Of a stretch of DNA of 64,000 nt, positions 11,390 to 64,000 are shown one piece after another. The stretch covers positions 1 through 64,000 of the IMG/VR virus record IMGVR_UViG_3300042298_000319. The stretch is one strand, 5' to 3'. Position 1 is the first letter of the stretch; every line of letters begins with the position of its first letter. This DNA is from a virus. Position numbers and translations under genes: made by a program. The notes under the pieces are model-generated. The model saw only the letters and a list, made by a program, of their open reading frames with translations, searched no databases and was not told the origin of the DNA.

Positions 11390-11764
11390 ATGGCAAACCC
11401 AAGTATTCTTTCCGCGACTTCCATCATAGGAGAGAACTCGCTAACTTCTCTTACTACGACGGGGGCTACGTCCATTCTGAGTAATGCTGCGTCAAGCAAC
11501 AAGGTGTTCAAACTAAACAGCATTATTGTTTCTAACGTGGACGGTGCGACTCCGGCGGACATTACGATCAACTTCTACAGCGCGGCGGCACTAGGCGGAA
11601 CAGCGTTCCCAATCGTTTCTACGTTGTCTGTCCCTGCGGATTCGTCGGTAATTGTCGTTGATAAAACCACAGGGTTGTACGTAAAAGAAAACCAATCAAT
11701 CGGTGCTACGGCAGGCACCGCAAACGATCTTGTTGTAGTGGCTTCTTGGGAAGAAATTACATGA
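11390..11764 (+). CDS. Small beta-sandwich structural protein
   Basis: A 124-residue protein. The sequence (KVFKLNSIIVSNVDGATPAD ... SSVIVVDKTTGLYVKENQSI) is an alternating beta pattern without charge clusters. It lies between the first fibre and the first polyglycine adhesin, overlapping the latter by ATGA, so it may link fibre and adhesin. No family recognised. Confidence 0.6.
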   Translation: MANPSILSATSIIGENSLTSLTTTGATSILSNAASSNKVFKLNSIIVSNVDGATPADITINFYSAAALGGTAFPIVSTLSVPADSSVIVVDKTTGLYVKENQSIGATAGTANDLVVVASWEEIT

Positions 11765-12723
11765 GTCTTCGTTATATTGGTGGTCGTCTTGTTGGTAGTG
11801 TTGATACCAATACGTCTGGGATAAAAATCCCATCAGGCATTTTTACGCCTAACCAATTAACTGAAGCAGATATTCCAGCAGCCGGTCAACAGGAATACAC
11901 CACCGCAGGTACTTTCTCTTGGGTAGCGCCACTTAACGTCACAAGCGTATCCGCTGTTTGTATTGGTGGGGGTGCAGGCGGTAACTACTCAACTGCGGGT
12001 AACGGTGGTTCGGGTGGTGGCGGTGGTGGATTAGGTTGGAAAAATAACATCGCAGTTGTTCCCGGCACTTCTTATACCGTCATAGTGGGTGTTGGCGGCA
12101 CCAGCTCTTCAACTTCTAACATTTCTGTTACCGGCGCAGGAGGCGATAGTTCCTTTATCAACACCTCGACTGTCAGGGGCGGTGGTGGGGCAGGCCCTTC
12201 TACCTTCCTTGTTGGTGGTACGGGCGGAACCTTTACCGGAGACGGTGGTGGTAATGGTGGAGCAGGGGGCTCTGCTGCGGGGACTACTAGTGCCGGGGGT
12301 GGTGGGGGTGCTGGCGGGTATTCAGGCGCTGGCGGTGCTGGTAGCGCATCAGGCGCAGCAGCAGGCAGCCCCGGAACCGGGGGTGGTGGTGGTGGTGGCG
12401 CGGGGGGAGGCAGCGCAGATACAGGTGGAGGTGGTGGCGGCACTGGCATTTATGGTGAGGGCACAAGCGGGTTTGGTGGGTCTGCTACCGGCGGGGACGG
12501 TGTTGGGGCAGGGGGTGGTTCTGGTGGTGGTAATGGAACCCAGCAATTTACTGGTGCAAACTTTTACGCCACAAACCTACTATCCACCCCCGGTGCCCCC
12601 GGTGGAGGTTCTGCGGGGTCAGATTCCACTGGGCTTGAGATGGCAAACGGCGCAGTAGGCGCGGTGCGTATTATCTGGGGTAAAAATAGAGCGTTTCCTT
12701 CTACTAACACGGGTAATCTGTGA
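11761..12723 (+). CDS. Polyglycine-rich adhesin (first copy)
   Basis: A 320-residue protein starting at the ATG at 11761 (ATGA overlap). About 55 N-terminal residues are followed by a short beta domain (TFSWVAPLNVTSVSAVCIGG) and roughly 200 residues that are mostly Gly with Ser/Ala. It closes with GAVRIIWGKNRAFPSTNTG. Long glycine tracts of this kind form polyglycine-II helix bundles in phage receptor-binding tips (T4-type gp38 adhesins, established). The same layout returns at 14246. The role in host recognition is inferred. Confidence 0.72.
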   Translation: MSLRYIGGRLVGSVDTNTSGIKIPSGIFTPNQLTEADIPAAGQQEYTTAGTFSWVAPLNVTSVSAVCIGGGAGGNYSTAGNGGSGGGGGGLGWKNNIAVVPGTSYTVIVGVGGTSSSTSNISVTGAGGDSSFINTSTVRGGGGAGPSTFLVGGTGGTFTGDGGGNGGAGGSAAGTTSAGGGGGAGGYSGAGGAGSASGAAAGSPGTGGGGGGGAGGGSADTGGGGGGTGIYGEGTSGFGGSATGGDGVGAGGGSGGGNGTQQFTGANFYATNLLSTPGAPGGGSAGSDSTGLEMANGAVGAVRIIWGKNRAFPSTNTGNL

Positions 12724-12977: not shown

Positions 12978-14249
12978 ATGCCGTTTGTTCTTAACGACAG
13001 GGTACTTGAAATATCGACGACAACAGGAACAGTCCCTTTCGTTTTGGGAGGCCCTCCTTCGGGCTACCAATCTTTCTTGTCAGGTATTGGCGGTAGCAAC
13101 ACCACGTTTTATGCAGCGTTTAACACCGTTGCTAATGAATGGGAATTAGGTCTTGGTACATTGAATGCCGGAGCCACAGAACTTACTCGCACAACGATAT
13201 ACAGTAGTTCTAACAGTAACTTAGCGGTTAACTTTTCTGCTGGCACTAAGAATGTCTTTGTAGCTCTACCTTCGTCACAAACGCTTACTGCCAGTCAATC
13301 AAACATTTTTACCGCTGCGCAGACGTTTAGAGCAGCTAGTGCGGTTCGTTCAGAAGCAGCAGCCACACAAGATGCTGTTGTACTTGCTGGACGGGCAGGC
13401 GGCACATCGTCTTATGCAGTAACTATAACTCCTACTACGCTGTCTGCAAACCGCACGCTAACTTTAGCAGACGGGAATACCACATTAGTCGCAGGTACAA
13501 CGGCAGTCCTTGGTACGGCGCAGACATTTACCGCAGCACAGACTTTCCGGGCAGCGAATGCAGTTCGTTCAGAAGCAGCAGCTACACAAGACGCGGTAGT
13601 GTTGGCAGGGCGCGCAGGAGGTACAGGTTCTTTTGCAGTTACTTTGACCCCCACTACGCTTTCTGCCAGTCGCACTCTGACACTTCCCAACGTCACTGAC
13701 ACTGTAGCGACGATTGGAACTGCACAAACATTTACTGCCGCTCAAACATTCCGAGCGGCGAATGCTATTCGTTCGGAAGCAGCTTCTACGCAAGATGCTT
13801 TAGTTGTTGCGGGTAGGGCAGGGGGCACAGGAAGCTTTGCCATTACGCTTACCCCCGATACATTAGCGGCGAATAGAACGTATACGTTTTCAGACCCCGG
13901 CGAAAATGTCACCGTTGGGTATTTAAACATCCCACAGAATTCGGAATCGGCTGATTACACGTTAGTAGCGTCCGATGCTGGAAAGCATATTTTCCATCCC
14001 TCTGCGGATACCACTCCACGAACTTTTACAATTCCAGCAAACGGCACTGTTCCATACGCCATAGGCACAACAATTACTTTTATCAATCAAAACGGAGCAG
14101 GGGCAGTAACCATTGCAATCACCTCCGACACAATGCGATTAGCGGGGTCTGGGGCAACGGGTAGCCGGACTTTGGCGGCTAATGGTATTGCAACATGCAT
14201 AAAAGTCACTAGCACTGAGTGGCTTATTTCTGGGACCGGGCTAACGTGA
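12978..14249 (+). CDS. Tail fibre protein with three internal repeats
   Basis: A 423-residue protein. Residues 1-100 (PFVLNDRVLEISTTTGTVPF ... SAGTKNVFVALPSS) are related to the start of the 10031 protein. Residues about 110-305 hold three copies of a roughly 69-residue unit containing TAAQTFRAANAVRSEAAATQ and DAVVLAGRAGGTGSFAVTL. The C-terminal domain is beta-rich (GTTITFINQNGAGAVTIAIT). It is likely a fibre or spike shaft. Its stop overlaps the next start (GTGA). Confidence 0.72.
   Translation: MPFVLNDRVLEISTTTGTVPFVLGGPPSGYQSFLSGIGGSNTTFYAAFNTVANEWELGLGTLNAGATELTRTTIYSSSNSNLAVNFSAGTKNVFVALPSSQTLTASQSNIFTAAQTFRAASAVRSEAAATQDAVVLAGRAGGTSSYAVTITPTTLSANRTLTLADGNTTLVAGTTAVLGTAQTFTAAQTFRAANAVRSEAAATQDAVVLAGRAGGTGSFAVTLTPTTLSASRTLTLPNVTDTVATIGTAQTFTAAQTFRAANAIRSEAASTQDALVVAGRAGGTGSFAITLTPDTLAANRTYTFSDPGENVTVGYLNIPQNSESADYTLVASDAGKHIFHPSADTTPRTFTIPANGTVPYAIGTTITFINQNGAGAVTIAITSDTMRLAGSGATGSRTLAANGIATCIKVTSTEWLISGTGLT
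13306..13890 (+). repeat. Three tandem coding repeats, about 207 bp each
   Basis: Units begin near 13306, 13516 and 13722. The DNA copies differ at many third positions while the protein stays close, so the repeats are old and kept at protein level rather than freshly duplicated. They form the shaft of the 12978 fibre protein. Confidence 0.8.
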
Positions 14250-15097
14250 GTGGCATTGTTCAAGGATTACTTGCTAGTCTTGGCACGGCGATCCCCGGTC
14301 AGAATGCATATATCGTCCCCGGCACTTACACATGGGTAGCGCCTGAACACGTGTCATCTGTTTCTGTTGTTGCTATAGGTGGTGGCGGTGGCGGTAGCAA
14401 CGGTGCTGGTAGTGGCGGGGCGGGTGGTGGCGGGGGTGGCCTTGGCTGGAAAAACAATATTCCGGTTGTATCCAGACAGTCGTACACGGTTGTTGTTGGC
14501 GTAGCAGGAGCTAGAGGCAACACCGTAGCTAGTGATGGTGGAGATAGCTACTTTATTAGTACTGGAACTGTGTATGGGCAAGGCGGACGCGGAGCAACTA
14601 GCGCACTTGCGGGCGGGGCCGGGGGCACATTTGTAGGTGATGGTGGGGGTAACGGTGGTAGTTCTGGAACCTCGACCACAGCTTCTGCGTCTGGTGGTGG
14701 CGGTGCTGGTGGGTATTCCGGTAACGGCGGGGCAGGCGCTGCTACAGGTCTTGCCGGAGGAAACGGCGCTGGAGGTGGAGCCGGTGGCGGTTCTGCTGGC
14801 GGGTCGTCAGATGCCGCAGGTGCTGGTGGCGGTGTTGGTATTTTAGGTGAAGGCACGTCAGGAACAGGCGGGGCGTTTAGCGGTGCGGATGGTGCACCGG
14901 GTACCGGCGGTTCTGGCGGGGCAAATGGTTCTCCTACTCCGGGGTCAACGGCAAACCCATCCACAGGTGGAGCGTATGGTGGTGGCGGTGGCGGCGCAGA
15001 ACTTTTAAACGAAAACGGCCCCGGCGCAGTAGGTGCAGTGCGTATTATATGGGGTACAGGGCGCTCTTTCCCTGCTACTAATACCGGCGATGTGTAA
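14246..15097 (+). CDS. Polyglycine-rich adhesin (second copy)
   Basis: A 283-residue protein starting at GTG 14246 (GTGA overlap with the fibre stop). It parallels the 11761 protein throughout: TYTWVAPEHVSSVSVVAIGG, then GLGWKNNIPVVSRQSYTVVV, glycine tracts, and the ending GAVRIIWGTGRSFPATNTG. Its N-terminal region is shorter (about 35 against 55 residues). It is probably the distal receptor-binding tip paired with the preceding fibre, an alternative or a partner to the first adhesin. Confidence 0.72.
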   Translation: MSGIVQGLLASLGTAIPGQNAYIVPGTYTWVAPEHVSSVSVVAIGGGGGGSNGAGSGGAGGGGGGLGWKNNIPVVSRQSYTVVVGVAGARGNTVASDGGDSYFISTGTVYGQGGRGATSALAGGAGGTFVGDGGGNGGSSGTSTTASASGGGGAGGYSGNGGAGAATGLAGGNGAGGGAGGGSAGGSSDAAGAGGGVGILGEGTSGTGGAFSGADGAPGTGGSGGANGSPTPGSTANPSTGGAYGGGGGGAELLNENGPGAVGAVRIIWGTGRSFPATNTGDV

Positions 15098-18813: not shown

Positions 18814-20736
18814 ATGCCAAGTACATATTCTCAAGACCTACGTATTGAACTAATTGCTGCCGGTGAGCAATCCGGTACATGGGGCTCTACAACCAACAAC
18901 AACTTAGGCAACTTAATTGAAGATGCTATTTCCGGCGCTGTTGTAATTACAATCGACCCCGGCACTGGGGTGCAGCAAGCAATACTAGCCGCAAATGGCG
19001 CGATTGATCAGGCGCGTTGTTCGGCGCTTGTTTTAACCGGCGCTACAGATGATTTTGAAATTTTTGCCCCCCCAGTTACTAAAATCTATGTCATACGAAA
19101 CGAGTGTTCGTTTCAAGCTACGTTGTGGTGCGCTACTACAATTAACGGCACTACTGCCCCAATAGGCGCTTCCGGCTACATTATTCCTGCAAACAAAACT
19201 GTACTTGTTCACTCCCCTGATGGCGTTCAGTTCTACGACGCTATGAACTATTTAAACAGCGCACTACCAGCTAACAGCGGGGGTACAGGATTCCAAACTT
19301 ATGCAGTTGGTGATCTGCTTTATGCAAACACAACTACATCATTAGCTAAATTGGCGGACGTTGCTACGGGAAATGCTTTAATTTCTGGCGGAGTAAATAC
19401 CGCCCCTGCTTGGGGAAAAGTAGGGCTAACTACTCATGTTACTGGGGTGTTGGATGAGACTAATGGTGGTACAGGTCAATCTACCATTCCAGCGTTATCT
19501 GTTCTTGTTGCAAATACATTAAATACTTTAACCCCTGTGACGGTAACAGCAGGGCAATCAGTAAAGTTAAATAGTGGCGGCACAGCATGGGAGGCCTATA
19601 CTCCTTCAGGCGCAGGCAGTGTCACTTTTACAGGCACCGTCCCAGTAGCCCAAGGGCAAGTAACAGTATTTAACGACACCTCAGGCACTTCCATTACCAC
19701 TGCGCGCACGTATCAGTTCCGGGCAACAAGTGCGGGGCCCGCGCAAATTCAGTTATTTGAAGATACCGACAGCGGCGCCGACGCTATAACTATTCAACCT
19801 CCTGCCACACTTGCTAGTAGTTACACGCTGACGTTACCTACAACAGACGGCTCTGCTAGCCAATTACTACAAACAGATGGTTCTGGAGTTTTGACTTGGG
19901 CGACAATTACAGCAGGGACAGGGATTACTGTTACGCCTGCGTCCGGGTCTATAACTATTGCAGCAACAGGCGGTGGTGGCACTGGGGACGTAGTAGGCCC
20001 GTCTTCTGCCACTAACAATGCGATTGTTCGCTTTGACGCAACTACAGGTAAGTTAATTCAAAACTCGGTTGTAACTATCTCTGATACGGGCGCAGCAACA
20101 GGATTTACTACATTAAATGCCAGCAGCACAATAACAGGTAACGGGTTCGTCTCAAGTACCGGCGCATATAACTTTACTGCAAGTGCCGAATCTATTTTTG
20201 GTTCTACTGGGTTAGTTTCTATTGCTGTTGGTGGCTCTGCGCGTATTGACGTAACTATTTCTGATTTTCTACCAGACGGCGATAACAACATGGGGTTGGG
20301 TTCTTCTGGTAAACGCTGGACTGCGGTGTATGCAGTAAACGGAACTATTCAGACTTCTGACGCCAACAGCAAACAAGACATTGCTGATCTTGACGACGCC
20401 GAAAGACGAGTGGCGGCGCGTATTAAAGGGCTGATTAAAAAATTTCGCTTTAAGGATGCCGTAGCCACTAAAGGGGATGCAGCGCGTATTCACGTGGGAG
20501 TAATTGCCCAAGAAGTACGAGACGCGTTTACTGCTGAAGGACTTGATGCAGATCGTTACGGCATGTTCTGTTCGGATACATGGTGGGAGCGCGAAGAAGA
20601 TGTGTATCAACCCTTTAACGGGACCACTGTACGTAAGAAAGTAATTCACAAAACCCCAGTAGAAAGTGCGACTGAGGTTACTCAGTTAGGTGTGCGCTAC
20701 GACGAGCTTCTCGCGTTTGTTATTGCCGCTATGTAA
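18814..20736 (+). CDS. Tail fibre with C-terminal S74 intramolecular chaperone
   Basis: A 640-residue protein. The N-terminal domain (STYSQDLRIELIAAGEQSGT, residues 3-22) is a recurrent phage fibre start; residues 150-500 are repetitive beta sequence. The C-terminus from about 510 is a peptidase S74 domain: TSDANSKQDI holds the predicted autocleavage Ser515-Asp516, followed by HVGVIAQEVRDAF and YDELLAFVIAAM. S74 domains trimerise the fibre and are then cut off (established for endosialidases and T5 L-shaped fibres). Confidence 0.85.
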   Translation: MPSTYSQDLRIELIAAGEQSGTWGSTTNNNLGNLIEDAISGAVVITIDPGTGVQQAILAANGAIDQARCSALVLTGATDDFEIFAPPVTKIYVIRNECSFQATLWCATTINGTTAPIGASGYIIPANKTVLVHSPDGVQFYDAMNYLNSALPANSGGTGFQTYAVGDLLYANTTTSLAKLADVATGNALISGGVNTAPAWGKVGLTTHVTGVLDETNGGTGQSTIPALSVLVANTLNTLTPVTVTAGQSVKLNSGGTAWEAYTPSGAGSVTFTGTVPVAQGQVTVFNDTSGTSITTARTYQFRATSAGPAQIQLFEDTDSGADAITIQPPATLASSYTLTLPTTDGSASQLLQTDGSGVLTWATITAGTGITVTPASGSITIAATGGGGTGDVVGPSSATNNAIVRFDATTGKLIQNSVVTISDTGAATGFTTLNASSTITGNGFVSSTGAYNFTASAESIFGSTGLVSIAVGGSARIDVTISDFLPDGDNNMGLGSSGKRWTAVYAVNGTIQTSDANSKQDIADLDDAERRVAARIKGLIKKFRFKDAVATKGDAARIHVGVIAQEVRDAFTAEGLDADRYGMFCSDTWWEREEDVYQPFNGTTVRKKVIHKTPVESATEVTQLGVRYDELLAFVIAAM

Positions 20737-26653: not shown

Positions 26654-27061
26654 ATGCCTTTATATCAAGTAACGCCCCAACAACTGCCGCAAGTCTGGCC
26701 TATTGTAGCCCCTATGTTGCAGCGAGCTGTTGATCTGGAGCCAGAGCAAATTACTATAGAACAGGCTGAGTATTTAATACGTACAGGGCAAACGTACTTA
26801 CTTATATGGGAAGAGCCCGATGAAGGTATTACAGGCGCTGCGACGGTAGAAATTATTGACTATCCACGACAGCGTGCGGCACATGTCAACTTAATGGGCG
26901 GCAAAGGAATAGTCCGCCCGCATGTGTTTGAAGAAGCAAAAAATTGGATGCGGTTGATGGGCGCTACTGTAGCGCAGTGTTGGGCTAAAGGCTCTCTAGT
27001 CACTATGTATGAAAAGATGGGTATGTCTAATACTCATCAGGTCATGAGGGAAAAATTATGA
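26654..27061 (+). CDS. GNAT-fold protein, T7 gp13-like
   Basis: A 135-residue protein with GNAT features: a central strand pair (TYLLIWEEPDEGITGAATVE), then AHVNLMGGKGIVRP, the helix HVFEEAKNWMRLMGA, and the terminal VTMYEKMGMSNTHQVMREKL typical of motif B. T7 gp13, an internal core protein, is a degenerate GNAT of nearly the same length. Whether this one binds acetyl-CoA cannot be judged. Its stop overlaps the next start (ATGA). Confidence 0.65.
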   Translation: MPLYQVTPQQLPQVWPIVAPMLQRAVDLEPEQITIEQAEYLIRTGQTYLLIWEEPDEGITGAATVEIIDYPRQRAAHVNLMGGKGIVRPHVFEEAKNWMRLMGATVAQCWAKGSLVTMYEKMGMSNTHQVMREKL

Positions 27062-29816: not shown

Positions 29817-32800
29817 ATGGTAACTTATGAAATCCGTGGGCCAGATGGCAAGAACTATCGAATTGATGGCCCTGAAGGAGCTAGTAAGGAACAAATAGTA
29901 TCGGCTATTCAAGCCAAGCTTGAATCTAAAAAGACCGCTAGGGAAGAAGAGGAAGCGGCTAAAAAAGTTGAAGCCCCTAAAGCTGAACCTGAAACAGGGT
30001 TTACCGCTGCCGTTCGTTCGGGCTTTGTACGTCTGCTAAGTGACTTCGAAGCAATGAAGGCGGCTGGTAACGTAGAAGGCGCTGAGAAAAAAGCCAAAGA
30101 GCTTAGAGAAGAGGCGGCAAGAATATACAAGCAGCCAGAACTGCTTGATGCTCCGTGGGAATATATTAAAGGGCTGGCTGGTCAGTCACTCCCCTATATG
30201 GTTGCGCCGGTCGCCGCCGCTGCCGCTGCTACTGTTGCAGCCCCCACCGCTATCGCTGGCCTTGCTGCTACTGGCGCAGCGTTCACCGCCTCCGCGTTAC
30301 AGTTCTCCGGGTCTAACCTTTCCCGTCAGCTAGAAGAAAATGTAGCGGCGAAAGACCTAAAGGTACTAAACGCCGTTGCCGCATCTGTGCCACAGGCCGC
30401 GCTTGATACCCTCAGCTTACGCATGGTTCCGGGGCTTAGAAATGTGTTCGCTAAAGCTGGTATTAACCTAAGCGAAAAAGAAGCTGCGCAGGTCGCTAAA
30501 GAAAGTATCGTAGGACGCGTAGCTAAATCTTCCGGGGCAGAAGGTCTTACAGAAGCTGCGCAACAAGTGTTTGAACGCGCTCAGGCAGGGCTAAGTCTGA
30601 CTGACCAGAAGGCACGCAAAGAGTACTTTGACAACTTCATAGGCGGTGCAATCCTTGGCGGCGGTATAGCTGTACCCGGTGCTGCCTACGAGAAGATGAA
30701 GGCGCAGGACAAAGTCCTAGCCAAAGAAGCAGAAGATGCGCGTAAAGCGGCGGAGCAAGAAGCCGCTAAGATTAGTCAGACTGCCGTGCCTGATGAGACA
30801 GGCAACGTGCCACCCCCGGCACCGCTACCCTCCTTTGAAACAAGGCCACCAATTACAGCGGCCCCTGAAGCCGACATTGACCCAACTATTGCGCTGGCCG
30901 AAGCCGCAGCAGCACCGATTGAGGCCACGCCAGCTAAACCCGCTGAAGCCGCCCCAGAAGCAGCGCCCGCTCCTAGCGGGTTGTCAGACCTAGAAATTGA
31001 AGACGCCTACGCTGCTACAGGAGTTAACACAGAGAAGGTGCGTAAGACTCTTGAGCCGCAACTTATCGAGGCGGGCTTTGATACTAAAGAGAAACAAAAG
31101 GAATTCTTACGTAGCAAACAAGCTGAACTAGGCATTCCGAAGTTTGATCCAAAAGCTTCGAAAGAGGAGCAAGAAAAACAGCGAGAGGCTAAGAAGTCTT
31201 GGATTGAAAGTCACACGGCTAAAAAACAAACGGAGGTTACTGATGTCGAGAAGCCTACTAGAGTTGACCCAACAACAGCTCAGCCTAGCACTGTTAGTCC
31301 TGCATCAGGAGTGGGAGCAACCCCCACAGGAGCTGAAACACTTGGAACCGTTGGATTGGGTGATGCTGGAGGACCTACTACACCACCTCCTACAACAGAA
31401 GGAACGCAGCCCGCTGCATTAAAGCAAAGTGAAATAACTTTCAACGACGGCGCCACATATGTTGGGACAACCTTAAATGGTGTACTTGAAGGGCAGGGAA
31501 CGCTAACTTACCCTAATGGCGACACATATGTTGGTGAATACAAAAACGGTAAACGCGACGGTCAGGGCACGTACACTTTTGCTGACGGCGATACATATGT
31601 TGGCGGATATAAGGACGACAAGTTTCACGGTCAGGGTACATACACTTACGCTGATGGCTCTGTAGAAACAGGTATTTTTGAAAATGACGAATTAATTTCG
31701 GAGGAGAAACCCGGTGTCTCTGAAACCCCTCAAGCCGAGCAAGCAGAAGCGCAAAGACAAGAAGAAGCAGCCCCCGCCGAGCGCGTAGTACTTACGCCTG
31801 AACAACTTAAGACAGGCTACAAACTACTGCAAGAGCAGTACGGCGATGAGCTACCTTCGTGGGGTGACCTTACCGCTGATATGCGGAAGGCGTTTGTTGG
31901 TGAAATAGAAGGCGCTTTAAAGACCAAAGGCATGTTGCCTTCTAAAGGCGCTGCGCCAACAGTGTCTCCTAATATTGCTGCGCTCAAAAAAGTTAAAGCG
32001 GTTATTAATTCTTATAACGAAAACCGCCCTGAGCGTATGCGGCAATGGGCTGATCTTAACGAAGATGAGCGTGCGTTGTATCTGTCTGAGATTAGAAACA
32101 ACACAGCGGAAGAACAAGACAGGGCATATAACCTGTTGTATGGGTATATGAAGTCCAGTCAGAAAATAACGCAAGAAGGAATGGAAGAAGGCATCGTGCC
32201 AGAAGGCGCGTCTGTCTATGAATTAAATAAAAAGGCATACACTTCTCAACTCCCACGTTGGGGCGAACTAGACGATACAGCGCGTTCACTATTTATAAAC
32301 GCGATCCGCCCCGGCATGACGTTTGATGAGAACGGTAAAGAGGTATCGCGTCAGATAACTAGTGAACAAATGGACACGGGGTTTGCTGACATTTGGATTT
32401 ATTTAGCAGAGAAAGAAGCCCGCGCCCCGAAAGAAGAAGAAGGCAAGGCACAGCGAGTCGCCAGAGAAGAAGCAGCGGCTGCTAAAGAAGAAGTCGAAGT
32501 CGGTGCAGAACTGCCTCCGTTAATTAAGGCGCTTCTGGGTAAGGGCGGTGTCAAAGAAGCCCTACAGTACATAATGAGTAAGGCTAAAGGCGTACGGATA
32601 AATAGAAAAGGCCGTAAGCTTGGCTCCGTGCGGGTTGCTGAAGCACGCTATGCGGCACTTACTCGCGGGATATTTAAGAACGTAGCAGCTGCGCTCTATA
32701 AGATTGACTTCTCTGGATCGTCTGTTGTCGTAGACCCGAACAACGCTGTAATTAAACAGTTGATACGTGAGGGCAAGTTAGCCGCGTACGACCCTAAAAC

Positions 32801-35800
32801 AGATACGTTCTACTTCACCAAAGACGGTATGGATGAGATGACCGTCCTGCATGAGATTGTTCACGCAGGCACGATCAAGATTCTGTACGCATTTAAGACC
32901 AACCCTAATAGCCTGACTCGTGAGCAGCGAGAAGCCGCTGAGCAGATCAATAAAGTATACGAGTTTGCTAAGAAGAAATTAGAAGGCAAGTATGCCAATC
33001 AGCTAGAGAACGTGTATGAGTTTGTTAGCTACGCGCTAACCGACCCACGCTTCCAAGAAGAGCTATCGCGTATACAAGCGCCTTCTCTTGCCAGATATAC
33101 AAAGGCGCCTCTAGGCGCACCGTCCGGCTTTAACATGCAGACGGTTTGGTCGCACTTGACCAAAGCTATGATGAAGTTGTACGACCTAACAAAGGCTGCA
33201 ACTAGGTTCTTTGAAATTAAGCCAGACTTGTATGACCAAGTGTCAAGGGCATTTGGCGGCGAGAGATACACCAAGCAGAAACTAGAAATAAACAAAGGCG
33301 TACAACGCGAAGTAGCTGTTTATCTTGAGACAGAAGATAAAAAGAGGGGGGAACTAAGCCCCGGTGTACGACTGACGTTTGAGTCTGTTAGAAATCTAAA
33401 AGACGATGTGCAAGAACGTCTTGAAGAAAACTACCCAGATGCGTTTGAAGACACGTCAGACCAAGGCGTCTTAGACTTTGTAAACAAGTACCTAAAAGAC
33501 AAAGCGTTTGCAGAAGAAGTCGATAAGACGACTGCTGACATTTACAAACAAGGTAAAGTTGGGCTGTCCAAACAAGCTGGTTTTCAAGGCAACGCGCTGC
33601 TTGAGGTTACCCAAGCGTTCCAAGACATTCTAGCTGCGCCAGAGGCGGGCATCGACATAGAGGCTCTACCAGCTAAACAGGCTAAGCCAACTATACAGGC
33701 CCCGGCTGGTGGTTCTACAGATATTAACGAGCTGCGTGACAGCATCCCTAGCCCGTCGTTCAACGCTAGACAAGTAGTTAAGACATTTAGCTTGAGTAAA
33801 TTTACGGAAGCTGCGGTGCGCATTTTCCAGAACGACCGTGCCGCTATTAAGAATTGGCAGCGCAGAATGTGGCTGACAGGTCGGTTAGTCGCCTACTCTA
33901 CAGGGTTCAACAACATATACGATCAGCTGACGCTGTCTTCTGGTAACGCCCACTGGCTGTATACGCAATACGTTCAAGAGCATAACGAGGCTGTGCGCGA
34001 AGCAATAGCCGATTACGCAAAAGCCCGCAAGCTAGATATGGACACGGCGTTGAAAGAGCTTGGCATGTTTGCGGTGGCCTTGCATGAACCTGAGCGGCGT
34101 GAAGTCCTCTATTTGCGTACAGTCGATCTATCCGATAAACCAATACTTATCGACAAAGCTACAAAGACGCCTATCTCCCCACGAGAAGCGCGTGACGCAA
34201 TCTTTAAGTATCTTGACTCAAACAAGTTAACTTTAGCTGACGCTAAGTATTTACGTAAGACGCTGGAAGATATTGTCAATGACAAGAGTAACTTGGACAG
34301 CACTGTAAGTCCTACTCTGCTAGACCGTAACGACCAGAAGTACGCTGTGGCGGGCTACACACCAGCCCAAGTTAAGGCAATGATCGCCAACTATAACCAA
34401 CACAAAGCGGCGGCAGACAAAGTGTTGGACAAACTTAAAGCTGTAAACGAAGCCACTCTTGAGCTTAACAAGATGGCTAATTACATGTCTGAGTACGCCA
34501 ATAACTATTTGATGTTCTACGGGTTTAACAGCTACGTTCCGTTTAAGGGCAAGAACTTTAACGAAGACAAAGCCGACATGTTCAACCATGACGGGCGCAA
34601 GTTGGGCGGTGACTTCCAAGAACAGCAACATACGTTTGAAGGTCGCTTGACGGTTCCTGATAACCCGTTGCTACAAGTTATGGCAGACGGTGCGAAAGCC
34701 GCTATGCGGGCTGGACGGCGCGATGTGACACAGGCCATCTACAATGCAGTGAAAGAAAAAACATTAGATGGCGAGATCATAGAGGAAGTAGATTTTAAAG
34801 ACCGCGCCAATGACGACTTACTGCAAAGGCTTAAAGGGGACACAAAAGTATTCCATTACATGCCTGACGGTAAGGTAGCTATTATTCAGATTAATGATAC
34901 GCAACAACGCGAGGCTATCCGCCGCACTTACCGCGATACCAACCCTGCGTTGGACTACATGGTTAACACCATGAATAACCTAACTGGCAAAGTTGGGCAG
35001 ATGCACACCCGCTTCAAGCCGTCGTTCGCCCCTGTTAACTTTGTGCGTGACGTGCTGACTAACGCTTGGACTATTGGTGCTGAAGGCAAGGGGTTACTTG
35101 GCCCACTGCAATCGTTCCGTTATCTAAGTTCCGTTGCACTAAACATAGTCAAGGGGGACTTAATTAGATCATGGCGTGCCGCTGCGCTGTACTCACAAGG
35201 CAAAACTGGGGTACTTGAGCGGCTGGCAAAGAGTAATCCCTACTATAAAGACGTGCTGGATTACTATGAGTCAGGCGGCAGAGTGTCTTACATACAAGGC
35301 ATCGCGCCAAAAGGTCAGTTAGACCAGCTTCTTAAAGCCCCAAGTGGCAAGATTGACGTAAGCGGCGTTACTCGCTTGTTTGATATTTGGGTCGATACGT
35401 TTGAAACTGCTTCGCGTGTGGCGGCGTTTAGGCTAACTAAGTCAAACGAGATGGCTAAGCTATCTAAACAACCCGGCTTGTCTAAGAAAGAAATAGAAGA
35501 AGCCGCGACCAAGACAGCTGCGGCGTTCGCCAAGAACCTAGCTAACTTTGAGCAAGTAGGTGAGTGGGGTAGAAGTCTTGGTGCTCTGTTCATGTTCTAC
35601 CGCCCATCAGCTACTGGTGCAGTGCGTGCTATGGATGCTGTTGCCCCGGCGTTTCGCAATAAAGAGTCGGTAAAACAAAGCTTGCCTGAATACGCCCGCG
35701 CTGCGCAAATCCGCCATGAGCTTGGTAAAAACCCTACGGCTAAGAAAGAAGCAGAGCTAAAAGCAGAATTAGCTACGTTGGATAAAGCTTTAGCCACATT

Positions 35801-36863
35801 TGATAAGAACTACGGGCAGCTACAGACAAGTTCACGCTTAATGGTAGGCGCTTTAGCCGGTGCCGGAGTTACTTTGTATTTAATGGCGCAGGCAAGTTCA
35901 GACGATGACGAGCTAGGACGTAATAGAGTATCAACTGATGATATGGCTCGATGGACTAAGTTTGCCCGACTGCATTTACCGGGGTTTGATAACCCAATTC
36001 AGTTGCCGTGGGGCTTCGGCTTGGGCGCTTTTGCGGCGCTAGGTTCTCAACTCGCTGCCATGACTGATTCGGAAAACCCGACTAAGCCGACTGAAATCTT
36101 CGGCAACATGATAGACATCGCAACGGACTCCTTTCTCCCGCTGCCGTTCTCTCGCATTCCTTTAACGGAAGACCCCGGACGCAAGATGTTGGACAGTATA
36201 TTGCCTAGTATCTTCCGTCCAGCGTTTGAGTATTACATGAACATGGATGCGCTAGGGCACCAAATCTATAACAACCGGCAAAGCCGGTACGGTGATGCGT
36301 ATACAGGGGGCGACAATATACCGGAGGCATTTAAAGACGCTGCAATATTGTTGGCAGAGTCAACCAACGGGAAGATAAACTGGAGTCCTAACGTAATGTA
36401 TTTCTTCTTTAATAATTATGTGGACGGTGTATCGTCGCTAATTAATAGCCCATACAACATGGCGCTTTGGATGTCGGGCAGTAAAGACTTTAACTCACAC
36501 ACCGACACCATGATCTTCGACAGCTTCTTTGGATCAAGGTCTAACTTTGACGCGCGGCAATGGTCTAAAGTTGAAAAAGACCTAGAGCAACGGGCTGAAA
36601 AAATTAACATGTTTAAAAATGACCCAGCTAAATACTATGAGTACTTAGCTGAGAATCCGTTCGACGCTATGTTAGTTAAGATGTACAACGGCGATGCTAA
36701 CAAGAAGCTAAAAGACCTACGTGAAGAAGCTAACAAGTGGCGTACCATGAAAGGGTTAGACGTTAAAACAAGAACTGACCTTGTCAAAAACGTCGTGCTT
36801 CAGCAGAACCTTCTTAAGTACAGCCTAGTACAGAAATACAAAGCGTTTGGCGTAGAGCCTTAA
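29817..36863 (+). CDS. Giant polyvalent internal protein with MORN repeats and HExxH motif
   Basis: A 2348-residue protein. Residues 1-35 (EIRGPDGKNYRIDGPEGASK) are a small phage-typical domain. Residues about 120-170 are Ala-rich and hydrophobic. Residues about 541-625 hold three to four MORN repeats (GATYVGTTLNGVLEGQGTLT, GDTYVGEYKNGKRDGQGTYT, GDTYVGGYKDDKFHGQGTYT). His1012-Glu-Ile-Val-His1016 forms an HExxH zinc-protease motif. The C-terminal third (PVNFVRDVLTNAWT ... RSLGALFMFYRPSATGAVRA) resembles LPD38-type polyvalent protein regions (from memory). Proteins of this class are co-injected with DNA. Replacement of a T7 gp16-like protein is inferred from its position. Confidence 0.7.
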   Translation: MVTYEIRGPDGKNYRIDGPEGASKEQIVSAIQAKLESKKTAREEEEAAKKVEAPKAEPETGFTAAVRSGFVRLLSDFEAMKAAGNVEGAEKKAKELREEAARIYKQPELLDAPWEYIKGLAGQSLPYMVAPVAAAAAATVAAPTAIAGLAATGAAFTASALQFSGSNLSRQLEENVAAKDLKVLNAVAASVPQAALDTLSLRMVPGLRNVFAKAGINLSEKEAAQVAKESIVGRVAKSSGAEGLTEAAQQVFERAQAGLSLTDQKARKEYFDNFIGGAILGGGIAVPGAAYEKMKAQDKVLAKEAEDARKAAEQEAAKISQTAVPDETGNVPPPAPLPSFETRPPITAAPEADIDPTIALAEAAAAPIEATPAKPAEAAPEAAPAPSGLSDLEIEDAYAATGVNTEKVRKTLEPQLIEAGFDTKEKQKEFLRSKQAELGIPKFDPKASKEEQEKQREAKKSWIESHTAKKQTEVTDVEKPTRVDPTTAQPSTVSPASGVGATPTGAETLGTVGLGDAGGPTTPPPTTEGTQPAALKQSEITFNDGATYVGTTLNGVLEGQGTLTYPNGDTYVGEYKNGKRDGQGTYTFADGDTYVGGYKDDKFHGQGTYTYADGSVETGIFENDELISEEKPGVSETPQAEQAEAQRQEEAAPAERVVLTPEQLKTGYKLLQEQYGDELPSWGDLTADMRKAFVGEIEGALKTKGMLPSKGAAPTVSPNIAALKKVKAVINSYNENRPERMRQWADLNEDERALYLSEIRNNTAEEQDRAYNLLYGYMKSSQKITQEGMEEGIVPEGASVYELNKKAYTSQLPRWGELDDTARSLFINAIRPGMTFDENGKEVSRQITSEQMDTGFADIWIYLAEKEARAPKEEEGKAQRVAREEAAAAKEEVEVGAELPPLIKALLGKGGVKEALQYIMSKAKGVRINRKGRKLGSVRVAEARYAALTRGIFKNVAAALYKIDFSGSSVVVDPNNAVIKQLIREGKLAAYDPKTDTFYFTKDGMDEMTVLHEIVHAGTIKILYAFKTNPNSLTREQREAAEQINKVYEFAKKKLEGKYANQLENVYEFVSYALTDPRFQEELSRIQAPSLARYTKAPLGAPSGFNMQTVWSHLTKAMMKLYDLTKAATRFFEIKPDLYDQVSRAFGGERYTKQKLEINKGVQREVAVYLETEDKKRGELSPGVRLTFESVRNLKDDVQERLEENYPDAFEDTSDQGVLDFVNKYLKDKAFAEEVDKTTADIYKQGKVGLSKQAGFQGNALLEVTQAFQDILAAPEAGIDIEALPAKQAKPTIQAPAGGSTDINELRDSIPSPSFNARQVVKTFSLSKFTEAAVRIFQNDRAAIKNWQRRMWLTGRLVAYSTGFNNIYDQLTLSSGNAHWLYTQYVQEHNEAVREAIADYAKARKLDMDTALKELGMFAVALHEPERREVLYLRTVDLSDKPILIDKATKTPISPREARDAIFKYLDSNKLTLADAKYLRKTLEDIVNDKSNLDSTVSPTLLDRNDQKYAVAGYTPAQVKAMIANYNQHKAAADKVLDKLKAVNEATLELNKMANYMSEYANNYLMFYGFNSYVPFKGKNFNEDKADMFNHDGRKLGGDFQEQQHTFEGRLTVPDNPLLQVMADGAKAAMRAGRRDVTQAIYNAVKEKTLDGEIIEEVDFKDRANDDLLQRLKGDTKVFHYMPDGKVAIIQINDTQQREAIRRTYRDTNPALDYMVNTMNNLTGKVGQMHTRFKPSFAPVNFVRDVLTNAWTIGAEGKGLLGPLQSFRYLSSVALNIVKGDLIRSWRAAALYSQGKTGVLERLAKSNPYYKDVLDYYESGGRVSYIQGIAPKGQLDQLLKAPSGKIDVSGVTRLFDIWVDTFETASRVAAFRLTKSNEMAKLSKQPGLSKKEIEEAATKTAAAFAKNLANFEQVGEWGRSLGALFMFYRPSATGAVRAMDAVAPAFRNKESVKQSLPEYARAAQIRHELGKNPTAKKEAELKAELATLDKALATFDKNYGQLQTSSRLMVGALAGAGVTLYLMAQASSDDDELGRNRVSTDDMARWTKFARLHLPGFDNPIQLPWGFGLGAFAALGSQLAAMTDSENPTKPTEIFGNMIDIATDSFLPLPFSRIPLTEDPGRKMLDSILPSIFRPAFEYYMNMDALGHQIYNNRQSRYGDAYTGGDNIPEAFKDAAILLAESTNGKINWSPNVMYFFFNNYVDGVSSLINSPYNMALWMSGSKDFNSHTDTMIFDSFFGSRSNFDARQWSKVEKDLEQRAEKINMFKNDPAKYYEYLAENPFDAMLVKMYNGDANKKLKDLREEANKWRTMKGLDVKTRTDLVKNVVLQQNLLKYSLVQKYKAFGVEP

Positions 36864-61262: not shown

Positions 61263-62778
61263 TGCACTAAGACTATCTACCGCAGACATAAATAAGCTGC
61301 GTGCTAGGCTTCCCACCATGCCGGAGAAGCAAAAACGGCGTACTGCCGAGCTATTAAAGAAGTACAGAGAAGAAGTAACCCGCGAAATAGGCAAAGAATC
61401 GTTCTTAGACTTCGTAAAACACGTCTATCCGGGCTATAAAGTGGGCCCACACCACTATAGACTGGCAAAAATCTTCGAAGAAATTGCTTCTGGGGCGAAA
61501 AAACGGGTGATTGTGAACATCGCCCCCCGCCACGGCAAGTCAGAACTCATCTCATACCTCGCTCCAGCGTGGTTTTTGGGCAAATACCCGCAAAAGAAGG
61601 TCATTATGGCCTCACATACCGCTGATTTGGCGGTGCAGTTCGGTCGAAGAGTGCGAAACTTGGTTGGATCGGAGGCATACCGTGACATTTTTCCGCAGAT
61701 TGAGCTACAGGCGGACTCAAAGAGTGCGTCTAGGTGGGGAACCAATTTCAACGGGGAGTATTTTGCTATCGGTGTTGGCGGTGCTCTTGCTGGTCGTGGT
61801 GCTGACCTATTTATTATTGACGACCCCCATTCTGAGCAAGAGGCAAAACTGGGACGACCCGAAGTGTTTCTACCAGCGTGGGAATGGTTTCAGTCAGGAC
61901 CAATCCAGCGACTTATGCCGGGTGGGGCGATTATTGTAGTGATGACCAGATGGAGCAAACTTGATCTCACTGGGCAAATTATTACGCAGATGGAGCGTAG
62001 CGAGGATGTGGATCGCTGGGAAGTGGTGGAGTTCCCGGCAATCGATGAGAACGACCAACCTCTCTGGCCCGAATTCTGGCCGCTTGAGGAGCTGCTGGCG
62101 AAAAAGGCATCACTGGATATTCGATACTGGAATGCTCAGTACATGCAGCAGCCAACGTCGGAAGAAGGAGCGTTAATAAAACGTGAGTGGTGGCAGATGT
62201 GGGACAAAGACGACCCGCCACACTGTGAATTTACGATCATGAGCTTGGATGCGGCACAAGAAGCCAACAACCGCTCTGACTACAACGCCTTAACAACGTG
62301 GGGCGTGTTTTACAACGAGGAAGTAAACAACTACAACATCATCTTGCTTAACTCTATTAAGAGACGTATGGAGTACCCGGAGTTAAAACAGTTGGTGTTG
62401 GATGAGTACCGTGAATGGGAACCCGACTCATTCATCGTGGAGAAGAAGTCTTCTGGTTCCGTGTTGTATCAGGAGATGAGGCGTATGGGTGTGCCGATAC
62501 AAGAGTTCACACCGGGCAAGGGGCAAGACAAGATTTCTCGCGTTAACGCTGTTTCTTCACTGTTTCACAGTGGTGTGGTGTGGGCGCCGCACCGACGCTG
62601 GGCGATGGAGGTTATTGAAGAGTGTAATGACTTTCCGTCTGGCATAAATGACGACTTGGTGGACTCGACTACGCTGGCTCTGCTCCGCTTCCGGCAAGGT
62701 GGGTTTATACGACTGCATAACGACGAACCTGAAGAAATTCAGCTGTTTAAGTCGAAGAGGCATAGAGGATATTACTGA
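61252..62778 (+). CDS. Terminase large subunit
   Basis: A 508-residue packaging motor. Walker A APRHGKSE at 91-98, Walker B LFIIDDPHSE with Asp190-Asp191, and the C-terminal nuclease: Asp333 in SLDAAQE, FIVEKKSSG, and DDLVDSTTLALL near 472. This matches the Terminase_6 type. Start appears to be TTG 61252, 11 bp inside the small-subunit gene, with GGGGGCGGGA upstream. It cuts and drives DNA into the prohead. The portal starts on its last base (TGATG). Confidence 0.92.
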   Translation: MALDALRLSTADINKLRARLPTMPEKQKRRTAELLKKYREEVTREIGKESFLDFVKHVYPGYKVGPHHYRLAKIFEEIASGAKKRVIVNIAPRHGKSELISYLAPAWFLGKYPQKKVIMASHTADLAVQFGRRVRNLVGSEAYRDIFPQIELQADSKSASRWGTNFNGEYFAIGVGGALAGRGADLFIIDDPHSEQEAKLGRPEVFLPAWEWFQSGPIQRLMPGGAIIVVMTRWSKLDLTGQIITQMERSEDVDRWEVVEFPAIDENDQPLWPEFWPLEELLAKKASLDIRYWNAQYMQQPTSEEGALIKREWWQMWDKDDPPHCEFTIMSLDAAQEANNRSDYNALTTWGVFYNEEVNNYNIILLNSIKRRMEYPELKQLVLDEYREWEPDSFIVEKKSSGSVLYQEMRRMGVPIQEFTPGKGQDKISRVNAVSSLFHSGVVWAPHRRWAMEVIEECNDFPSGINDDLVDSTTLALLRFRQGGFIRLHNDEPEEIQLFKSKRHRGYY

Positions 62779-64000
62779 TGAGCATCGAAAAAGGATTGTA
62801 TGCAGCCCCGCAGGGGTTAGGGCAGGCCGTGATGGAGCCTGATTTAGAGATTGAGATTGAAGACCCAGAAGCAGTCAGACTGCGAACTGAAGGCCTAGAG
62901 ATTGACATTGAGCCGAAAGAAATGGACGACGAGGACTTTGAAGCTAACTTAGCTGAAGAGTTACCTGAGTCAATTCTGTCGCAGCTTGCGGGCGATTTGA
63001 TTGAAGATTATGAAGAGGACGTAGCCAGCCGTAAGGATTGGATACAGACGTACGTTGATGGCCTTGACCTTTTGGGGATGAAGCTTGAAGAACGGACAGA
63101 ACCTTGGGCGGGTGCTTGTGGAGTTACACACCCTCTTCTCGCAGAAGCACTCGTCAAATTCCAGTCGGAAACGATCATGGAAACTTTCCCGGCTGCTGGG
63201 CCGGTTAAGACGAAAATTATCGGTAAAGAGACTCCTGAAAAGAAAGAGGCGTCTGAACGCGTCAGAGACGATATGAATTATCGTCTGACAGAAGAAATGC
63301 CTGAATATCGCCCTGAACATGAGCGTATGTTGTGGGGTTTGGGCCTGTCAGGTAACGCGTTTAAAAAGGTTTATTTTGACCCGTCCTTGGGTCGACAGAC
63401 TTCAATCTATGTGCCCGCTGAAGACGTAGTTGTACCGTACGGCACATCAAGTCTTAGAACAGCAGAACGTGTCACACATGTGATGCGTAAGACTGAGAAT
63501 GAGATTAGAAAGCTGCAAGTCGATGGGTTCTATCGTGATATTGATTTAGGCGAACCGATAGACACTATTGAAGAAGTAGAGAAGAAAATCGCAGAGAAGA
63601 TGGGCTTCCGCGCTACTACGGACAGCCGATACAAGCTTCTTGAGATGCAGGTAGATTTAGACTTGCCGGGGTATGAGGATGAGGACGAAGATGGTGAAGA
63701 GACAGGCATTAAACTGCCTTACATCATTACTATCGATAAACATAGTCAGAAAATTCTGGCTATTCGCCGTAATTGGAAGCCTACAGACAAGCTAAAGCAT
63801 AAGCGTACGCACTTCGTTCACTACGGTTACATCCCCGGCTTTGGCTTCTATTGCTTCGGGTTTATTCACTTAATCGGCGCGTACGCGAAGAGCGGTACTT
63901 CGATCCTAAGACAGCTCGTAGACGCAGGCACTTTGTCTAACCTGCCGGGCGGTTTGAAAGCCCGTGGGATGCGTATTAAAGGCGACGACACGCCGATTTC
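62778..64000 (+). CDS. Portal protein, P22-like (truncated at right edge)
   Basis: Frame open from ATG 62778 to the window end: 407 codons, no stop. An acidic N-terminus is followed by the core TEPWAGACGVTHPLLAEALV, EMPEYRPEHERMLWGLGLSG and NAFKKVYFDPSLGRQTSIYV. The end HLIGAYAKSGTSILRQLVDA then GTLSNLPGGLKARGMRIKGD matches P22-type portals in aquatic phages (from memory). It forms the dodecameric vertex ring. More than 100 residues may be missing. Confidence 0.85.
   Translation, partial: MSIEKGLYAAPQGLGQAVMEPDLEIEIEDPEAVRLRTEGLEIDIEPKEMDDEDFEANLAEELPESILSQLAGDLIEDYEEDVASRKDWIQTYVDGLDLLGMKLEERTEPWAGACGVTHPLLAEALVKFQSETIMETFPAAGPVKTKIIGKETPEKKEASERVRDDMNYRLTEEMPEYRPEHERMLWGLGLSGNAFKKVYFDPSLGRQTSIYVPAEDVVVPYGTSSLRTAERVTHVMRKTENEIRKLQVDGFYRDIDLGEPIDTIEEVEKKIAEKMGFRATTDSRYKLLEMQVDLDLPGYEDEDEDGEETGIKLPYIITIDKHSQKILAIRRNWKPTDKLKHKRTHFVHYGYIPGFGFYCFGFIHLIGAYAKSGTSILRQLVDAGTLSNLPGGLKARGMRIKGDDTPI

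What the first reader, a model, noticed from the sequence alone, without database searches (positions are those of the whole stretch)
29817..36863. 2348-residue polyvalent virion protein combining MORN repeats and an HExxH motif
Seen: MORN repeats at about 541-625, HEIVH at 1012-1016, an Ala-rich hydrophobic region near the N-terminus, and a C-terminal third of the large polyvalent type. MORN repeats are best known for membrane and protein scaffolding. In a protein likely ejected into the cell, they could direct it to the membrane while the zinc-protease-like region acts on the host. The combination is unusual.
Basis: partly seen in the sequence, partly recalled or inferred. Interest (0 to 1): 0.7.

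Follow-up and report, generated by a model that had tools for sequence, protein, structure and literature searches.

The report
Phage ejection protein with swappable protease core
This giant protein is most likely carried in a short-tailed phage particle and pushed into the bacterium with the DNA; its two ends are conserved, but the middle, a predicted zinc protease sometimes preceded by MORN repeats, has been exchanged repeatedly between related phages.

Summary
ORF 29817-36863 encodes 2348 aa, with three MORN repeats (aa 548-616), HEIVH at 1012-1016, an Ala-rich hydrophobic segment (132-150) and Pfam LPD38 (2042-2211).

The predicted fold matches HExxH zincins, including the C1 domain of the ejected phage N4 virion RNA polymerase. 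Profile comparison with N4 C1 gives P 99.5, E 1.4e-22; the phiKMV-type ejection protein gp37 shares the domain too. The protein sits last in the virion operon, where largest ejection proteins lie.

Two points go beyond the finding. First, aa ~640-1285, with the peptidase, is an exchangeable module: two alternative versions switch at least five times on a tree of the conserved C-terminus. Second, the MORN block is a separate, rarer cassette. It is missing from a near-identical relative but recurs in the same linker of two divergent proteins at 58-71% identity, against 29-37% for their N-terminal and peptidase domains.

MORN as a membrane tether is not supported. Host proteolysis versus self-processing, and presence in virions, are untested. 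This is a new variant of a known kind: polyvalent ejected proteins.

The parts
29817..36863 (+). 2348-aa ORF: largest ejection (polyvalent) protein candidate
   Evidence: orthologues in IMG/VR
29817..30806 (+). conserved N-terminal domain, aa 1-330
   Evidence: pairwise identity profiles
30210..30266 (+). Ala-rich hydrophobic segment, aa 132-150, candidate membrane segment
30807..31436 (+). low-complexity Pro/Ala/Thr/Glu-rich linker, aa 331-540
31458..31664 (+). three 23-aa MORN repeats (31458-31526, 31527-31595, 31596-31664), aa 548-616
   Evidence: Pfam PF02493; cassette shared with L107 and L108
31665..31715 (+). C-cap of the MORN cassette (VETGIFENDELISEEKP), shared with L107 and L108
31734..33671 (+). 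exchangeable central module, about aa 640-1285 (edges approximate)
   Evidence: identity profiles; tree
31860..32306 (+). three W..L....R..F...I motifs (aa 682, 744, 815) found only in relatives with peptidase type I
32634..33236 (+). zincin-like metallopeptidase domain, aa 940-1140 (type I version)
32850..32864 (+). HEIVH motif, aa 1012-1016
33018..33020 (+). Glu1068, candidate third zinc ligand
   Evidence: invariant; 59/62
33714..36860 (+). conserved, mostly helical C-terminal region, aa 1300-2348
   Evidence: (low-confidence model)
35940..36449 (+). LPD38 domain, aa 2042-2211
   Evidence: Pfam PF18857
27058..29808 (+). 916-aa Gln/Ala-rich gene just upstream; position of a gp15-like periplasmic-tunnel protein (position only)
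26654..27061 (+). 135-aa gene with very weak acetyltransferase similarity, conserved in the operon

Best explanation
This is the largest ejection (pilot) protein of a short-tailed phage, of the polyvalent type. Inferred: it is packaged in the capsid and expelled ahead of the DNA; its hydrophobic N-terminal domain sits in the inner membrane, and its large helical LPD38-bearing C-terminus is the constant part needed for packaging and for building the ejectosome. Shown by sequence: the middle (about aa 640-1285) is an interchangeable module whose core is a zincin-like metallopeptidase domain with predicted zinc ligands His1012, His1016 and Glu1068 and general base Glu1013, homologous to the C1 domain of N4 virion RNA polymerase and to the phiKMV gp37 domain. 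Inferred: the peptidase acts on proteins during or just after entry, more likely on a host or defence protein than only on itself, because very different versions are exchanged repeatedly between otherwise similar phages. Shown: the MORN block is a second, optional cassette in the flexible linker before the peptidase. Inferred: it is a thin beta-hairpin rod that binds a protein partner, or dimerises, and so positions the peptidase; it is not the membrane anchor.
For: Virion/ejection role: last gene of the late virion operon, after genes matching virion structural families (phrog_3287, phrog_1645), tail fibres and lysozyme; the same slot in the related phage DSL-LC04 is annotated 'DNA transfer protein'; phiKMV gp37, which shares the peptidase domain, is a gp16-like ejection protein. 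Peptidase: HExxH 13/13 without selection, Glu1068 in 59/62 non-redundant relatives; AlphaFold model pLDDT 79.5; the 29 best structural matches are all zincin-fold domains, among them N4 gp50 residues 2152-2358, Z 7.0-7.1 over 151-156 residues, against 3.7 for the first unrelated row; profile-profile with N4 C1 P 99.5, E 1.4e-22, reversed control P 0.2. Module exchange: peptidase type needs at least 5 changes on the C-terminal tree over well-supported branches, as many as shuffled labels; the window protein is about 70-75% identical to L004 at both ends but about 17% in the middle, and the reverse pattern holds with L008. MORN cassette: 71% aa / 82% nt identical to L107 while the N-terminal domain is 29% and the peptidase 36%; dN/dS about 0.31.
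Against: No virion proteomics, no zinc measurement and no activity assay. N4 vRNAP, with the same domain, is packaged unprocessed, and the passages read from its structure paper report the motif but no protease activity (PMC12633501; Iyer et al. PMC5512222). The C-terminal region shows no significant homology to N4 C2 or to phiKMV gp37, so the packaging role is by analogy only. Repeated exchange could also serve self-processing, if cleavage sites are swapped along with the peptidase.
Confidence: 0.7

Rival explanations
1. The peptidase is a self-processing enzyme: it cuts the giant polypeptide in the low-complexity linkers, before packaging or after entry, to release separate units, as proposed for phage P1 DdrB. 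MORN is only a spacer.
For: Iyer et al. propose autoprocessing as the common theme and cite DdrB cleavage before packaging. Long low-complexity linkers flank the module, and peptidase and neighbouring linker swap together.
Against: N4 vRNAP with the homologous domain is packaged unprocessed. A fixed self-cleavage role does not need two very different versions exchanged five or more times.
Confidence: 0.35
2. The HExxH domain is structural: a conserved packaging or regulatory domain, as N4 C1 touches and helps inhibit its polymerase, with no proteolysis.
For: In N4 the C-terminal region that includes C1 represses transcription, and the region is needed for encapsidation.
Against: Both histidines, the catalytic Glu and the third-ligand Glu are kept across relatives averaging 30% identity, and HExxH is kept in all nine N4-like sequences examined, which is the pattern of an active metal site. 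No polymerase is present here to be regulated.
Confidence: 0.2
3. One reading: the MORN repeats bind the membrane and direct the injected protein to it.
For: MORN regions occur in membrane-associated junctophilins (one search lists them).
Against: TbMORN1 was shown not to bind membranes, and the authors warn against the inference for MORN repeats in general. The cassette is optional in this family, while the hydrophobic N-terminal segment is conserved.
Confidence: 0.1
4. The MORN block is a neutral passenger or a chimeric assembly without function.
For: It is absent from the closest relative, L002.
Against: Found in three separate metagenome assemblies at the same linker position with the same C-cap, and its codons are under purifying selection (dN/dS about 0.31).
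Confidence: 0.1

Closest known systems
Phage-type polyvalent proteins with zincin-like MPTase and LPD38 (Iyer et al. 2017, PMC5512222)
   Same: Very large late-gene protein; MPTase with HExxH plus Glu on a later helix; LPD38, listed there as phage-only
   Different: MORN repeats are not mentioned in the main text of that survey; repeated exchange of alternative peptidase modules between constant ends is shown here
Phage N4 virion RNA polymerase gp50 (Schitoviridae)
   Same: Order: hydrophobic N-terminal domain, low-complexity linker, HExxH C1 domain, about 1100-residue helical C-terminus; C1 homologous
   Different: No RNA polymerase domain here; C-terminal region not detectably homologous; MORN cassette added
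phiKMV gp37, a gp16-like ejection protein (Autographiviridae)
   Same: Homologous HExxH...E domain; last and largest gene of the ejection operon
   Different: 1337 aa, no MORN, no LPD38 match; C-terminal homology not detected
Zincin-fold structures matched by the model: PPEP-type secreted zincins, lethal-factor-fold domains, selecase
   Same: Overall fold and HExxH...Glu arrangement
   Different: 7-19% identity over the aligned residues; a shared fold only, with no inference about target or harm
MORN repeat proteins (MORN1, MORN4, junctophilins)
   Same: 23-residue repeats above the Pfam cut-off; phmmer E 1e-23 to solved MORN1
   Different: Three repeats set inside a giant virion-type protein

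Membership tests
Phage polyvalent protein (Iyer et al. 2017) | Two or more disparate domains in one very large polypeptide | tested here: met
   MORN, zincin MPTase, LPD38 in 2348 aa
Phage polyvalent protein (Iyer et al. 2017) | Gene among late virion genes | tested here: met
Phage polyvalent protein (Iyer et al. 2017) | Delivered into the host at entry | not testable with these tools
   needs virion and infection proteomics
Zincin-like metallopeptidase | HExxH motif | tested here: met
   conserved 13/13 in loci fetched by other patterns
Zincin-like metallopeptidase | Glu on a downstream helix as third ligand | tested here: met
   Glu1068: 59/62 non-redundant relatives, on helix 127-136 of the model
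Zincin-like metallopeptidase | Zincin fold | tested here: met
   29 best rows all zincin-fold domains, N4 gp50 C1 Z 7.1, first unrelated row 3.7; Foldseek alone weak, E 0.35
Zincin-like metallopeptidase | Zinc binding and proteolysis | not testable with these tools
   biochemistry needed
N4-type virion RNA polymerase | HExxH C1 domain | tested here: met
   hhalign P 99.5, E 1.4e-22
N4-type virion RNA polymerase | T7-type RNA polymerase domain | tested here: not met
   no polymerase match in Pfam, PHROGs, NCBIfam or PDB sequences
N4-type virion RNA polymerase | C2 helical domain | tested here: inconclusive
   hhalign P 1.3, reversed control 0.1
gp16-like ejection protein (T7 gp16, phiKMV gp37) | Last and largest gene of the ejection operon | tested here: met
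   operon order in window and relatives; review PMC8954989
gp16-like ejection protein (T7 gp16, phiKMV gp37) | Sequence homology to gp37 | tested here: met
   peptidase domain only; C-terminus not detected
gp16-like ejection protein (T7 gp16, phiKMV gp37) | Present inside the virion and ejected | not testable with these tools
   no isolate
MORN repeat protein | Tandem 23-aa MORN repeats above curated score | tested here: met

The most novel reading that the evidence does not exclude
These phages carry an injected polymorphic effector: an ejection protein with constant ends and a variable middle, in which peptidase versions and MORN adaptors are exchanged by recombination, the MORN groove choosing or holding the host protein that the peptidase cuts.
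Probability: 0.25. Interest if true: 0.78.

Novelty: new variant of a known kind. Interest (0 to 1): 0.56.

Why it matters
What the HExxH domain of giant ejected phage proteins does has been open since it was recognised in N4 virion RNA polymerase. A family in which alternative versions of that domain replace one another between constant ends is a natural experiment: it predicts that the domain meets something variable in the host, and it marks residues and module borders for a direct test. It also adds MORN repeats, known mainly as protein-interaction modules, to the parts list of ejected phage proteins.

Tried and rejected
(1) MORN unique to this phage: rejected by L107 and L108. (2) MORN elsewhere in this virus: none. 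(3) Deep homology of the C-terminal half to N4 C2 or phiKMV gp37: not detected. (4) AlphaFold model of aa 1300-2348: too poor to use (pLDDT 54.5), so no fold search was run on it. (5) The family in bacterial genomes (prophage or host clue): none found. (6) Homology with the slot-equivalent genes of DSL-LC04 and HTVC027P: not detected by tblastn or Pfam. (7) HExxH conservation over the 76 loci is partly built in, because one search pattern contained it; only the 13 loci and the Glu1068 column were used as independent evidence. (8) No paper found linking MORN repeats with ejection proteins; the library lacks most subscription journals. (9) Foldseek alone gave no match under E 0.35.

Full report
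OBSERVATION. The ORF at 29817-36863 is real and encodes 2348 aa. Pfam places three MORN repeats (E 2.5e-18) and LPD38 at 2042-2211 (E 5e-15), both over the curated cut-offs. PDB chains of MORN1 proteins match aa 541-625 at E 1e-23. HEIVH is at 1012-1016, where about 0.01 such motifs are expected by chance, and the strongest hydrophobic window is 132-150.

RELATIVES. Thirteen loci from IMG/VR encode relatives, most of them full-length; they came from search patterns without HExxH or MORN. All 13 keep one HExxH, and none has MORN. A scan with the peptidase alignment gave 76 loci; many of these proteins also carry the LPD38 region. No bacterial genome in the GTDB collection held the family.

PEPTIDASE. 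In the first nine sequences His1012, Glu1013, His1016 and Glu1068 are invariant. In 62 relatives under 80% identical to each other (mean pairwise identity 30%), Glu1068 is Glu in 59. The HExxH column of those loci is partly fixed by the search pattern; the Glu column is not. The AlphaFold model of aa 940-1140 (pLDDT 79.5) has a helix, a small sheet, the HExxH helix and a later helix bearing Glu1068. Foldseek's best rows are minimal gluzincins, but at weak E (0.35). VIA-align gives zincin-fold domains in the first 29 rows, with N4 gp50 at Z 7.0-7.1 over 151-156 residues (residues 2152-2358), and drops to 3.7 for the first unrelated row. Z under 8 alone would be modest. The sequence profile settles it: our 72-sequence profile against nine N4-like C1 domains gives P 99.5, E 1.4e-22, with the HExxH motif and the Glu aligned, and a reversed control gives P 0.2. 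The phiKMV-type gp37 shares the domain as well (tblastn E 7e-6; hhalign P 96.8), and that protein itself matches both the internal-virion-protein family and the C1 segment of the virion-RNA-polymerase family.

VIRION ROLE. The gene is last in a run of late genes that includes tail fibres, lysozyme and virion structural families. The order (small gene, 916-aa gene, giant gene) is kept in relatives and resembles the gp14-gp15-gp16 operons of podoviruses, where phiKMV gp37 is the gp16-like member (PMC8954989). The nearest isolated phages by terminase are DSL-LC04 and pelagiphages; in DSL-LC04 the gene in this slot is called DNA transfer protein, although no homology is detectable. The domain order also mirrors N4 gp50: a membrane-inserting N-terminal domain, a 100-residue low-complexity linker, then (after the polymerase) a C1 HExxH domain and a large helical C2 (PMC12633501). 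No polymerase is present here. Presence in the virion is therefore an inference.

EXCHANGEABLE MIDDLE. Against L004 the window protein is mostly 50-95% identical over aa 41-360 and 53-90% from about aa 1285 to the end, but only about 15-20% over most of aa 360-1285. Against L008 the pattern is reversed: mostly 50-93% over aa 640-1280 and lower (15-70%) at both ends. On a maximum-likelihood tree of the C-terminal region, the two peptidase types need at least five changes on well-supported branches, no fewer than shuffled labels. The W..L....R..F...I motifs at aa 682, 744 and 815 occur only with type I. The middle is thus a replaceable module.

MORN CASSETTE. The near-identical relative L002 (95-99% in the N-terminal, peptidase and C-terminal regions) lacks the MORN block. 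A scan with the block alone found L107 (six repeats) and L108 (three repeats), both in the same linker of HExxH proteins and with the same C-cap. Window to L107: MORN 71% aa and 82% nt over 339 nt, against 29% for the N-terminal domain and 36% for the peptidase. Window to L108: MORN 58%, against 30%, 37% and 41% for the N-terminal domain, peptidase and C-terminus. dN/dS for the window-L107 cassette is about 0.31. So this is a separately exchanged cassette under purifying selection. It is rare: 0 of 13 relatives found without using it as bait. In 50,697 phage records the block matches only two, neither of them shown to be an ejection protein. MORN repeats also occur in other viral contexts and widely in bacteria.

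MECHANISM. Committed reading: a constant-ended ejection protein that carries a swappable zinc-peptidase module, with MORN as an optional protein-binding rod. Shown: homology, ligand conservation, module exchange, cassette exchange. Inferred: packaging, ejection, zinc, proteolysis, host target, MORN partner. Host targeting is preferred over pure self-processing because the peptidase versions alternate so often, but N4 shows that a protein with this domain can be packaged unprocessed, and autoprocessing remains the main rival (PMC5512222). The membrane role proposed for MORN is not supported (PMC7725318).

NOVELTY. Polyvalent proteins with MPTase and LPD38 are known; the MORN combination and the measured shuffling of the peptidase module were not found in the papers searched. 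New variant of a known kind.

Noticed in passing
31860-32306: Three spaced W..L....R..F...I motifs (aa 682, 744, 815), one to three copies in most relatives with peptidase type I, none with type II; a possible small helical repeat.
   Followed up: partly
L005 and L023, linker region: The same linker carries other, unrelated inserts in other phages, so it is an insertion hot spot.
   Followed up: partly
11746-12723 and 14219-15097: Two paralogous genes, both matching phrog_4474 and weakly a tail-fibre-assembly family, in the tail-fibre region.
   Followed up: no
18814-20736: Tail fibre/spike-like protein with a C-terminal intramolecular chaperone (Peptidase_S74).
   Followed up: no
75-476: GroES-like co-chaperonin gene just before the capsid genes, as in DSL-LC04 and HTVC027P.
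   Followed up: partly
62778-64000 and 1-75: Portal gene runs off the window end while GroES and capsid genes open it: the record (65485 bases) looks like a circularly permuted, nearly complete genome.
   Followed up: no
L120:4641-7091: An 817-aa protein in another viral contig with two separate groups of MORN repeats, not related to the ejection protein family.
   Followed up: no
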